Source of the DNA: a virus
DNA: 41,975 nt
Reading direction: 5' to 3' (one strand)
Virus record (IMG/VR): IMGVR_UViG_3300047469_000380
Coordinates: 1-41,975 of that record
Within the stretch, counting starts at the first letter, position 1. Each line of letters opens with the position of its first letter. The notes under the pieces are model-generated. The model did no database searches. It was given only the letters and a program-made list of their open reading frames with translations, and was not told the origin of the DNA. The position numbers and the translations under genes are program-made. Shown here piece after piece: positions 2,138 through 8,611 of the stretch.

Positions 2138-2410
2138 TCAGGCTGCCTGCTTCTTGATGGTGCCTTGGGATGGTGGAGCGGAGTGAACGACCAGGTGACC
2201 TTGGCCTTCCCAGAAGTTTTCTTGCACCTCGACGCAGACCCTCCAGGCTGCCCAGGCTACGTCGTCCCCGGCCGCTAGGATGTTTCCTTTTTCGTCTACG
2301 ACAGCCAGACGCGCGTATTGGCCTTCGGGACCAGTTACGGTGAATCCAGTACTGACCGTAGCGTTGAGACTGGCACCATTCAACGTCGGGTTCGGAAGCG
2401 CTGCTTTCAT
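2138..2410 (-). CDS. hypothetical protein, last gene of leftward early operon
   Basis: This is a 90-residue protein beginning MKAALPNPTLNG. It has no signal peptide or membrane segment and is rich in beta-prone stretches (FTVTGPEGQYARLAVVDEKG). The ATG start overlaps the stop of the upstream methyltransferase in an ATGA, which favours this start over the upstream in-frame one and implies translational coupling. It is not recognised as a known family. Its position directly after the C5 methyltransferase suggests a linked role, but that is only context. Confidence 0.65.
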   Translation of the reverse strand: MKAALPNPTLNGASLNATVSTGFTVTGPEGQYARLAVVDEKGNILAAGDDVAWAAWRVCVEVQENFWEGQGHLVVHSAPPSQGTIKKQAA

Positions 2411-4398
2411 CTCTGCTGCTCCAGCTGGGCCACGGAAAGTGCTATAGCGACCGGTTGAACCCAAATCGACACATTGCTGAGCATGAAGGTCTCGCCCGCT
2501 TCAGCGAGCAGCAGTGTCATGCCAAACACATCGGCCATTGCTTTCGCCGCCTGGCGTGGTACCGCGTTGCCGATGCGCTCCCGGTGATTGCCGTCGTTGA
2601 TGCCGTCCAGCTGGAAGAACCGCGCCTGCTCTATCTTGCGAACGCGCTGCATCGTCTGGATTTCATTGAAAGTCTGCGGATCCGCTGACCAATGTTCATC
2701 CGGATCAAAAAGCGATTGCAGGGCGGCCAGCTCCAGGGTGGTGAAGGGTCGGTGCCAGGTCCCATCGGGACTTGTGATCATGCAGGTCAGCCGGTCGTTG
2801 GGTGCCGGCATACGCTGGTCCGCCACTGACCAACGTCCGTTGTCGTGCCGGGCGCTGGCGGATACGGCTCCGGCCGTTTCCTTCCAGTCCACAACCCCGT
2901 AATGCCCTCCGGTGATGTAGGCATCTCCTTTTTTACGTGACATGCCAGTGCGCGGATCTGCAATGGACAGGGCGCCGCTGGCGACCTGCTGCGAGCCGGT
3001 GACGGTCTTGGCGCTTTCGCACCAGGGCGTGATGCGCAGCTTTTGCGTGCTAGCGCCTGGATGCCAGTTCTTGTACGCAGGATCTGCAACGGCAAACGCG
3101 CCTTGCTCAGTCGTGCTGCCGGCGATCACCGTGCCGGCCGGCTGGGGATAGTCGGTGACCAGGTACTTGCCGAAACCCTTCGACGGTTGCCGTGGGTCGG
3201 CCACGGCTTGCCCGCCGGAGCTTGGCCCATGGCCAGCCGTCACAGTACCGGCGGCCAGATCGATGGCCACCACGCGGAACACGTTGTTGTGGCGTTCACC
3301 GCTCATTCGAGGGTCTGCAACGCTGAATTTGCCTTGACCTGGGCTGCGTTGCCCGGTGACCACGCCGCAATGACGGTCATAGGGCAGTACGCCGAATTGC
3401 GTGTACTCAAACTTGTTGGTGGGCCTTGGGTCGGCTACCGAGAATTTGCCATTGGTTGGGCTGGATCGGCCGGCTACCGTGCCGGCGGTACCCTGCCAAT
3501 CATGAACGCCGAGATAACCGGCTCGATATTCCGGCACGATTACGAAGTCGCGTAGGTGGCCGTCCTCGATCGCAAACCGGCTCAGGCTGCGCCAATCTTT
3601 ACCGGCCTCGACCAAGGCTAGTCGAACCCATGTCTTCCACTGCAGTGCGGGAACACGGTGCATGGGGCCTGCCTGTTCAATGTCGCCGGCCAGTGGCATG
3701 CGGCTCAGCACGTCGCCCACGGCGCGCAAGCTTCGCTTTTCCGGCTCGTACAGGAACGCTGGGACTTTCTCTACGTGCCTGGCGACAAGCAGAAAGCGTT
3801 TGCGGCTCTGGGCTAACCCGCCGATTTCACCGCAGTCGTGAGTGGTCTCGGCCACGGCGTAGCCGTAGAAGCTGAGCAGCTTGTTGATCTGGTCCAGTAG
3901 GTGCCGGCCACGAGTTGCTAGACGTGGCACGTTTTCGAACACGATCAGCGACACGGGGTTGTGCTTCCAGGCTTCGCACATTAGCCACACGCATCGCAGT
4001 GTCAGCTCGTTGAGCGCCTGATATTTCGGCGTCTGGCTCATTGTTTCAGATAGAAGGCCCGAGGCGCCTTTGCATGGGCTGCTGATGAACACTGCGTCGG
4101 GATCTTCGTTGCCGGCAGCGCGGCGCAGATCATCAGCGGTTGCCTCTTTCCAGCCTGCAGGAGGCTGCTGACCATGGAATGCGTTGAATTGCTCACGGGT
4201 GAACAGATCCATCAATGTGCCAGGCACTCCAGTCATCATCTGGAAGTCACGCAACCCTGCCGGGTCAACGTCGACACCGCCAAGGCAACGCCATTCGGCT
4301 TGGACAGGGCCAAGGGCGGGTTTGGAGTCGCTGAATCCTGCCGCACCGCTACCAAGGCCGCAGCACAGATGAAAGTGTTTGAAGGTGCGCTTAAGCAT
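2407..4398 (-). CDS. C5-cytosine DNA methyltransferase with six-fold repeated target-recognition region
   Basis: The 663-residue enzyme should transfer a methyl group from S-adenosylmethionine to C5 of cytosine in DNA. Motif I is FHLCCGLGSGAAGF (9-22). The catalytic Cys109 lies in SSPCKGASG (motif IV, with K instead of the usual Q). ENVP is motif VI (155-158), QSRKR motif VIII (197-201), RPFTTLELAALQ motif IX (about 550-561) and RIGNAVP motif X (608-614). Between VIII and IX, where the target-recognition domain belongs, six degenerate repeats occupy about 294-530. Each ends in VADPR or a variant (at 321, 360, 399, 437, 479 and 525) and carries an AGTVxG-like core. The start has a good AGGAGG site and overlaps the upstream stop by 8 bp. 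It probably protects phage DNA from host restriction. No partner endonuclease is visible. Confidence 0.92.
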   Translation of the reverse strand: MLKRTFKHFHLCCGLGSGAAGFSDSKPALGPVQAEWRCLGGVDVDPAGLRDFQMMTGVPGTLMDLFTREQFNAFHGQQPPAGWKEATADDLRRAAGNEDPDAVFISSPCKGASGLLSETMSQTPKYQALNELTLRCVWLMCEAWKHNPVSLIVFENVPRLATRGRHLLDQINKLLSFYGYAVAETTHDCGEIGGLAQSRKRFLLVARHVEKVPAFLYEPEKRSLRAVGDVLSRMPLAGDIEQAGPMHRVPALQWKTWVRLALVEAGKDWRSLSRFAIEDGHLRDFVIVPEYRAGYLGVHDWQGTAGTVAGRSSPTNGKFSVADPRPTNKFEYTQFGVLPYDRHCGVVTGQRSPGQGKFSVADPRMSGERHNNVFRVVAIDLAAGTVTAGHGPSSGGQAVADPRQPSKGFGKYLVTDYPQPAGTVIAGSTTEQGAFAVADPAYKNWHPGASTQKLRITPWCESAKTVTGSQQVASGALSIADPRTGMSRKKGDAYITGGHYGVVDWKETAGAVSASARHDNGRWSVADQRMPAPNDRLTCMITSPDGTWHRPFTTLELAALQSLFDPDEHWSADPQTFNEIQTMQRVRKIEQARFFQLDGINDGNHRERIGNAVPRQAAKAMADVFGMTLLLAEAGETFMLSNVSIWVQPVAIALSVAQLEQQR

Positions 4399-7813: not shown

Positions 7814-8611
7814 TTAGCCACTGTACGGACAATGCGGCAGTGGGTACGCGTTTACTGGGCGAATAGTGGACCACCAAAAAATGCGTCCGAGGACCTTCAT
7901 TTGTTGTTCCATAAATTGATCAAACGAATATGTTTCGTCTGGGAAATCTCCTCGATTGTAGCTGATGAGCCGAAGCCCGCCGCCATCCAATCGTTCCAAA
8001 AATTTCACTCGGAGCGAGCCTTCCTGTTCAATAGCATACAAATGATCCGGGATGATTTTGGTCATCCCGCGGTCGATACCGACTATTGCCCCGTGCAGTA
8101 TCAAAGGCTCTTGGCTCTTACCTGTAACGGAGGCACACATAGCGTTTGCTGCCTCAACACCACATTCTCGTAGGGTGGCTTCAGGGAATCGAATTATTCG
8201 ACCCCATTCACCTTGAACTGCTGTTCGCCCGCTACCTGCCGAGATCTCTACCTGTTTGAATAGAGGGATTTCTACCGCTCCATCGTCAAGCGGGGTGGAG
8301 CTATCCCAGGCAGTGATAGGTGCAAGGTCTAACGCGGACCGTTGTTTGAAGATCGGTTGGTCGGGCGTTATAGGGGTGACCGTCGCGGGCATGTCTCCGT
8401 TCTCAAGCCACGCGACCGAAATATTCAATCCTCTGGCAATCGAGCCAGTCTTGCGACTTTCTCTCGTGAGCCCAGCAAGAATCTTAAATATTGTTGTCTG
8501 CGAACAGCCGGCGAGTTTAGCTACGTCTGGTTGGCTCATGTCGAGCTGTTCCATGGCGTACTTTAGCCGGTCGGCGAGAGTGGGCAAAAATTCTGAAGGT
8601 AGATATTTCAT
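7814..8611 (-). CDS. CI-type lysogeny repressor (HTH plus S24/LexA-like domain)
   Basis: The 265-residue protein keeps the prophage silent. The N-terminal HTH (about 12-70) contains MSQPDVAKLAGCSQTTIFKI. The C-terminal S24 peptidase-like domain has Ser166 in GKSQEP (matching the GxSMxP nucleophile motif) and Lys203 in RVKFLERLDGG, the general base. A plausible self-cleavage site is Ala125-Gly126 in ISAGSG, so RecA-stimulated autocleavage and SOS induction are likely. The C-terminal tail after FWWSTIRPV is longer than usual. The ATG lies six bases after a -10-like TAGAAT, so the mRNA may be leaderless, as for lambda cI from P_RM. Confidence 0.92.
   Translation of the reverse strand: MKYLPSEFLPTLADRLKYAMEQLDMSQPDVAKLAGCSQTTIFKILAGLTRESRKTGSIARGLNISVAWLENGDMPATVTPITPDQPIFKQRSALDLAPITAWDSSTPLDDGAVEIPLFKQVEISAGSGRTAVQGEWGRIIRFPEATLRECGVEAANAMCASVTGKSQEPLILHGAIVGIDRGMTKIIPDHLYAIEQEGSLRVKFLERLDGGGLRLISYNRGDFPDETYSFDQFMEQQMKVLGRIFWWSTIRPVNAYPLPHCPYSG

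What the first reader, a model, noticed from the sequence alone, without database searches (positions are those of the whole stretch)
2790..3540. C5 methyltransferase whose target-recognition region is built from six degenerate VADPR repeats
Six units of about 38-46 residues, each with an AGTVxG core and a VADPR-like end (protein positions 321, 360, 399, 437, 479, 525), lie exactly between motifs VIII and IX where a C5 methyltransferase carries its target-recognition domain. Multi-specific phage methyltransferases carry several recognition modules in this place, so the repeats may give several or exchangeable specificities. Catalytic Cys109, ENV, QSRKR and RIGNAVP are all present, so the enzyme looks intact, though motif IV has PCK instead of PCQ.
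Basis: partly seen in the sequence, partly recalled or inferred. Interest (0 to 1): 0.68.

Follow-up and report, generated by a model that had tools for sequence, protein, structure and literature searches.

The report
Methyltransferase with swappable DNA-recognition repeats
A bacterial virus carries a DNA-methylating enzyme whose DNA-reading part is a row of six interchangeable small modules, and hundreds of related viruses and plasmids carry 3 to 10 such modules in different combinations, probably to disguise their DNA from many different bacterial restriction enzymes with one protein.

Summary
A 663-aa C5-cytosine methyltransferase (window 2407-4398, minus strand) carries six degenerate ~38-residue repeats (window 2806-3534) between motifs VIII and IX; held-out repeats score far above shuffles. 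Relatives in >250 distinct proteins (Pseudomonas phages, IMG/VR contigs) and in 167 plasmid records keep the catalytic core but carry 3 to 10 repeats, drawn from 18 module types in 66 arrangements. Near-identical cores differ by exactly one whole module, cut within the VADPR codons. [quoted passage not shown] Module types differ mainly at residue T-12 and the loop after TL, at or near the positions that touch DNA in M.HhaI and M.HaeIII. Best reading: a tandem target-recognition array that lets one enzyme methylate several sequences, as in Bacillus phage enzymes M.SPRI and M.Phi3TI, used against host restriction. Limits: AlphaFold2 gave no usable model of the repeats (pLDDT ~30-40), and no target sequence could be inferred. 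The always-last module B lacks the conserved Thr, so six independent specificities are not shown. New, larger, more combinatorial variant of a known kind.

The parts
2407..4398 (-). CDS of the C5-cytosine methyltransferase (663 aa, ATG at 4398, stop included)
   Evidence: Pfam PF00145 34 bits vs cut-off 22; fold of the core of relative L012 matches M.HaeIII, M.HhaI, DNMT1
4069..4077 (-). motif IV PCK, catalytic Cys109 (K110 invariant in family)
   Evidence: invariant in 71-sequence alignment
3928..3936 (-). motif VI ENV (155-157)
3796..3810 (-). motif VIII QSRKR (197-201)
3418..3534 (-). repeat 1, module type A (aa 289-327), GTVAG
3304..3417 (-). repeat 2, module type C (aa 328-365), GVVTG
3184..3300 (-). 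repeat 3, module type E (aa 367-405), GTVTA
3073..3186 (-). repeat 4, module type D (aa 405-442), GTVIA
2947..3060 (-). repeat 5, module type F (aa 447-484), KTVTG
2806..2922 (-). repeat 6, module type B (aa 493-531), GAVSA; almost always the last module in the family
2701..2754 (-). motif IX-like HRPFTTLELAALQSLFDP (aa 549-566)
   Evidence: sequence; aligns by eye with LTPLECFRLQAF of Bacillus enzymes; invariant columns W548-L555
2557..2577 (-). motif X RIGNAVP (aa 608-614)
2138..2410 (-). small downstream ORF (MKAALPN...) that overlaps the MTase stop by ATGA; no family match
   Evidence: coordinates

Best explanation
An orphan, mobile-element-borne C5-cytosine methyltransferase with one catalytic core and a tandem array of six ~38-residue target-recognition modules. 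Each module is a version of the TL-motif core of a C5-MTase recognition domain: strand, [T/A/V]-[V/I], recognition loop, strand ending VADPR. In turn, different modules occupy the DNA-contacting position next to the core, so one enzyme methylates cytosines in several short sequences. This protects the phage (or plasmid) DNA from several host restriction enzymes. Arrays evolve by whole-module loss, gain and replacement, with exchange points in the conserved VADPR-coding hinge. Shown by sequence: repeats, position, TL register, type-specific contact positions, module turnover, intact catalytic motifs. Inferred: methylation activity, several target sequences, anti-restriction role.
For: Repeats are real and lie between motifs VIII and IX. 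Family of 255 distinct proteins: 3 to 10 modules, 18 types, 66 arrangements among 246 complete proteins. Close cores with different arrays: L185 ACB vs L181 ACHB (core DNA 99.2%) and L199 KGDB vs L214 KCGDB (97.1%) differ by exactly one 120- or 126-nt module bounded in VADPR codons; L277 vs L278 keeps core and C-terminus at 94-100% with a 56-87% array. Module consensus KYGVVPWDEPAGTVTG matches the TL-motif consensus (YFW)X(RK)X5P(STCA)PT(ILV)(TASV) of PMC2413257 in spacing. A TL matrix built only from other phage C5-MTases picks a repeat at the TL register as its best position in 198 of 243 family proteins, against 6% of positions by chance. Leave-one-column-out information on type peaks at T-12 and T+4 to T+12, overlapping the N-TL (T-13 to T-11) and C-TL (T+5 to T+7) trimers that contact DNA. 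Catalytic motifs invariant. Carried by phages and by 167 plasmid records, 66 conjugative, on pIHMA87 near a Lar restriction-alleviation gene and an N6 methylase.
Against: No methylome or activity. AlphaFold2 gave pLDDT ~30-40 over the repeats in both runs. No module type showed a site-frequency association in flanking DNA that survives multiple testing. The module profile has no significant match to Bacillus multispecific enzymes (best E 0.3), so the link rests on the TL motif and position. End modules are fixed (A or K first, B last), and B has Ala in place of the TL Thr in 99% of cases, which suggests a structural role for some repeats.
Confidence: 0.78

Rival explanations
1. Only some repeats are recognition modules. 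The fixed end modules (A/K and B, perhaps also C) are scaffold or pseudo-modules, and only the exchangeable middle ones add specificities, so the enzyme reads fewer than six sequences. (This is a narrower version of the best explanation and can be true together with it.)
For: A or K first and B last in nearly all 246 complete proteins; B has Ala instead of the TL Thr in 99% and C in 60%. Pseudo-domains are known in Bacillus phage enzymes (own knowledge: Lange et al. 1991).
Against: A, B and C have loops about as type-specific and conserved as the others, which a pure scaffold would not need.
Confidence: 0.45
2. The repeats together form one DNA-binding domain that reads a single target, or binds DNA non-specifically.
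For: Order is not random (AC...B prevails); units are similar in length and end motif.
Against: Copy number from 3 to 10, single-module loss or gain between near-identical enzymes, and type-specific residues concentrated at TL contact positions.
Confidence: 0.12
3. The enzyme makes a modification other than plain 5-methylcytosine, linked to the family-wide PCK motif IV.
For: K110 is invariant and kept in the Bacillus and Paenibacillus plasmid relatives. The core fold also matches a C5-carboxymethyltransferase (8yf3).
Against: 8yf3 is only one of 141 matches with E <= 0.001, nearly all ordinary C5-MTases in the part listed; no cofactor-modifying gene seen next to it; the phi3T/SPbeta enzyme has PCP at this place, so the position is tolerant.
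Confidence: 0.06
4. Decayed or non-catalytic remnant kept for another reason.
For: Broken copies exist (PA8: core disrupted; L020: interrupted frame).
Against: The window copy is intact with all motifs, and cores are well conserved across many elements.
Confidence: 0.04

Closest known systems
Multispecific C5-MTases of Bacillus phages (M.SPRI, M.Phi3TI/M.SPbetaI, M.Rho11sI, M.H2I, M.phiBssHII)
   Same: Mobile-element C5-MTase, tandem TL-motif recognition modules of similar size between motifs VIII and IX, modules shared and shuffled between enzymes; literature states that arraying several recognition domains in one polypeptide protects against many RM systems (PMC12707154; PMC8936443).
   Different: Low core similarity (profile comparison found only motif-level similarity); module profile does not match; PCK not PCQ/PCP; 3-10 modules of 18 types with fixed ends and VADPR hinges; mainly proteobacterial phages and plasmids, plus some Bacillota plasmids. 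Target sequences unknown.
M.HaeIII and M.HhaI (monospecific C5-MTases)
   Same: Same catalytic fold (1dct, 1hmy), motifs, and TL motif with flanking contact trimers.
   Different: One recognition domain instead of an array.
phrog_116 / phrog_32684 DNA methyltransferase families
   Same: The window protein matches both (E 3e-48 and 2e-131), so it belongs to a catalogued phage family.
   Different: No description of the repeats or of several specificities is attached to them in the library used.

Membership tests
C5-cytosine DNA methyltransferase (PF00145) | Profile match above curated cut-off | tested here: met
   34 bits vs 22; NCBIfam dcm superfamily below its cut-off (20.3 vs 100.65)
C5-cytosine DNA methyltransferase (PF00145) | Motifs IV (PC), VI (ENV), VIII (QxRxR), IX, X (GN) in canonical order | tested here: met
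   motif IV has PCK instead of PCQ
C5-cytosine DNA methyltransferase (PF00145) | C5-MTase fold | tested here: met
   confident core of the AF2 model of relative L012 matches M.HaeIII, M.HhaI, DNMT1
C5-cytosine DNA methyltransferase (PF00145) | Transfers methyl to cytosine C5 | not testable with these tools
   needs expression and bisulfite or LC-MS
Multispecific C5-MTase (works like) | Several tandem TL-motif modules between motifs VIII and IX | tested here: met
Multispecific C5-MTase (works like) | Modules exchanged as units between enzymes | tested here: met
Multispecific C5-MTase (works like) | Two or more methylated target sequences, each assigned to a module | not testable with these tools
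   indirect site-frequency test gave nothing
Bacillus phage multispecific C5-MTase family (member of) | Sequence homology of core and modules | tested here: not met
   profile comparison probability 1% with motif-level similarity only; module profile E 0.3 at best
Type II restriction-modification system | Cognate restriction endonuclease gene next to the methyltransferase | tested here: inconclusive
   none recognised beside it in the window or annotated next to it in the phage records viewed; several neighbours have no family match

The most novel reading that the evidence does not exclude
A separate, widespread family of multispecific DNA methyltransferases, shared by phages and conjugative plasmids of Pseudomonadota with distant relatives on Bacillota plasmids. 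It would be built from an open library of at least 18 recognition modules in arrays of up to 10, remodelled by recombination at a conserved VADPR hinge, so that one gene can track the restriction enzymes of successive hosts.
Probability: 0.6. Interest if true: 0.72.

Novelty: new variant of a known kind. Interest (0 to 1): 0.58.

Why it matters
If true, it is a naturally modular DNA-specificity reader: module identity would map to target sequence, so hundreds of natural arrays become a ready experiment on how C5-methyltransferases read DNA. It would explain how temperate Pseudomonas phages and plasmids pass many different restriction barriers with one gene, and it would give interchangeable parts for programmable methylation tools.

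Tried and rejected
AlphaFold2 of the window protein with 71 relatives and of a three-module relative with 148 rows arranged to avoid module misalignment: core good, repeats pLDDT ~30-40, so no structural claim is made. The first such alignment (A6) was discarded because C-terminal pieces aligned to the wrong module. Sequence search of the PDB: nothing for the single protein, only weak DNMT1 matches for the profile. Direct homology of modules to Bacillus enzymes: not significant. Inferring target sequences from palindrome frequencies near the genes: no association robust to multiple testing (D with GGGCCC p 0.026, J with GTAC p 0.010 over seven modules). A strict TL regular expression found nothing in the Bacillus-type set and was relaxed. 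Literature searches found no description of this family or a methylome.

Full report
What is there. The gene lies on the minus strand, ATG at 4398, stop at 2407, 663 residues. Six units of 38-39 residues occupy aa 289-531, window 2806-3534. A profile made from any five units of this one protein recovers the sixth with 18.8-40.5 bits, while the best of 1000 shuffles scores 5.1-10.8 bits. The protein passes the Pfam C5-methylase cut-off. A model of its relative L012 has a confident core that matches M.HaeIII, M.HhaI and DNMT1 in the PDB. Catalytic motifs are invariant in a 71-sequence alignment. The K of PCK is invariant as well. The enzyme of phage phi3T/SPbeta has PCP in this place and is an active enzyme (own knowledge), so the substitution does not argue against activity.

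Setting. The window is an IMG/VR virus record with a serine integrase at 485-2137 and a CI-like repressor at 7814-8611. The methyltransferase is near the end of a run of minus-strand genes that runs from the repressor side towards the integrase; its start overlaps the ORF upstream by a few bases and its stop overlaps the small ORF downstream by ATGA (from coordinates). No restriction enzyme was recognised beside it.

The family. Relatives were found in 36 phage records, 17 loci of bacterial genomes, several hundred viral contigs and 167 plasmid records, of which 66 are typed as conjugative. Hosts span Pseudomonas, Burkholderia, Roseomonas, Sinorhizobium, Marinobacter, Achromobacter, Azospirillum and Nitratidesulfovibrio. 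Bacillus and Paenibacillus plasmids carry 36-38% identical relatives with four units of the same kind. On plasmid pIHMA87 the gene stands near a Lar restriction-alleviation gene and an N6 methylase.

Module turnover. The 255 distinct proteins have a conserved core (64-91% identity to the window core among the representatives) but 3 to 10 repeats. Two broken or truncated copies have fewer. Clustering of 896 distinct module sequences gives 18 types and 66 arrangements in 246 complete proteins. The window arrangement is A-C-E-D-F-B, shared by 58. A (or K) is first and B last almost without exception; the middle changes. Near-identical enzymes differ by whole modules. L185 (ACB) and L181 (ACHB) have 99.2% identical core DNA and differ by a 120-nt unit running from PR to VAD. 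L199 (KGDB) and L214 (KCGDB) differ by a 126-nt unit starting at VADPR. L277 and L278 have 94-100% identical ends around an array that falls to 56-87%. This fits recombination at the conserved VADPR codons and replacement of whole arrays.

What the repeats are. [quoted passage not shown] The module consensus, KYGVVPWDEPAGTVTGGSGPGNGAFSVADPR, matches it with the same spacing, with V for R/K and G for P. A scoring matrix built only from other phage enzymes chooses a repeat at this register as its best position in 198 of 243 family proteins, while such positions make up 6%; the proteins are related, so this is not 243 independent tests. The same paper defines contact trimers at T-13 to T-11 and T+5 to T+7 from the M.HhaI and M.HaeIII complexes. 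In the present family the columns that best separate module types, with each column left out of its own clustering, are T-12 and T+4 to T+9 and T+11 to T+12. Columns between them (T-7, T-5 to T-3) vary freely within types. So types differ mainly where recognition domains touch DNA.

Mechanism. I conclude that each middle repeat is a target-recognition module served by one catalytic core, as in Bacillus phages, where several recognition domains in one polypeptide protect against many RM systems (PMC12707154; PMC8936443). Shown: anatomy, register, type-specific contact positions, turnover. Inferred: activity, several targets, protection from restriction. Probability that the enzyme has two or more specificities: about 0.8. 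Probability that all six repeats give one each: about 0.35, because B has Ala in place of the TL Thr in 99% and C in 60%, and the end modules almost never move.

What is missing. AlphaFold2 did not resolve the repeats, which counts neither for nor against. An attempt to infer targets from palindrome frequencies near the genes gave nothing that survives multiple testing. No paper found in the library describes this family; the library is incomplete, and REBASE could not be consulted.

Verdict. It works like the multispecific Bacillus phage enzymes but is not a member of that sequence family. It is a new variant of a known kind, notable for array size, module library and spread.

Noticed in passing
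L108 (Pseudomonas phage PA8), 3001-4043: The methyltransferase core is disrupted while part of the repeat region and the C-terminus remain as a separate ORF; a natural broken copy.
   Followed up: partly
L405 (plasmid pIHMA87), 1-4725: Methyltransferase near a Lar-family restriction-alleviation gene and an N6 DNA methylase, an apparent anti-restriction island on a P. aeruginosa plasmid.
   Followed up: partly
L104 and L102 (Citexvirus), directly downstream of the methyltransferase: A phosphoadenosine phosphosulfate reductase-like gene overlaps the end of the methyltransferase gene by 4 bases in these phages; relation unknown.
   Followed up: no
window 2138-2410, minus strand: Small ORF (MKAALPNPTLNG...) overlapping the methyltransferase stop by ATGA, with no match in NCBIfam, PHROGs or PADLOC; may be co-translated.
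   Followed up: partly
L411, L410, L408, L417, L432, L454: Other viral C5-methyltransferases of the Bacillus type carry two to three TL motifs, so tandem recognition modules may be commoner in viral contigs than the few characterised enzymes suggest.
   Followed up: no
L404 (Nitratidesulfovibrio plasmid), aa 413-422 of the methyltransferase: Fourth repeat is only a fragment (YRVVSWEQKS), a possible decayed module in place of the usual end module B.
   Followed up: no
L099 (phage H66), 8108-8248: A 46-aa ORF annotated as similar to a C5 methylase domain lies downstream of the full gene; possible remnant of a second copy.
   Followed up: no
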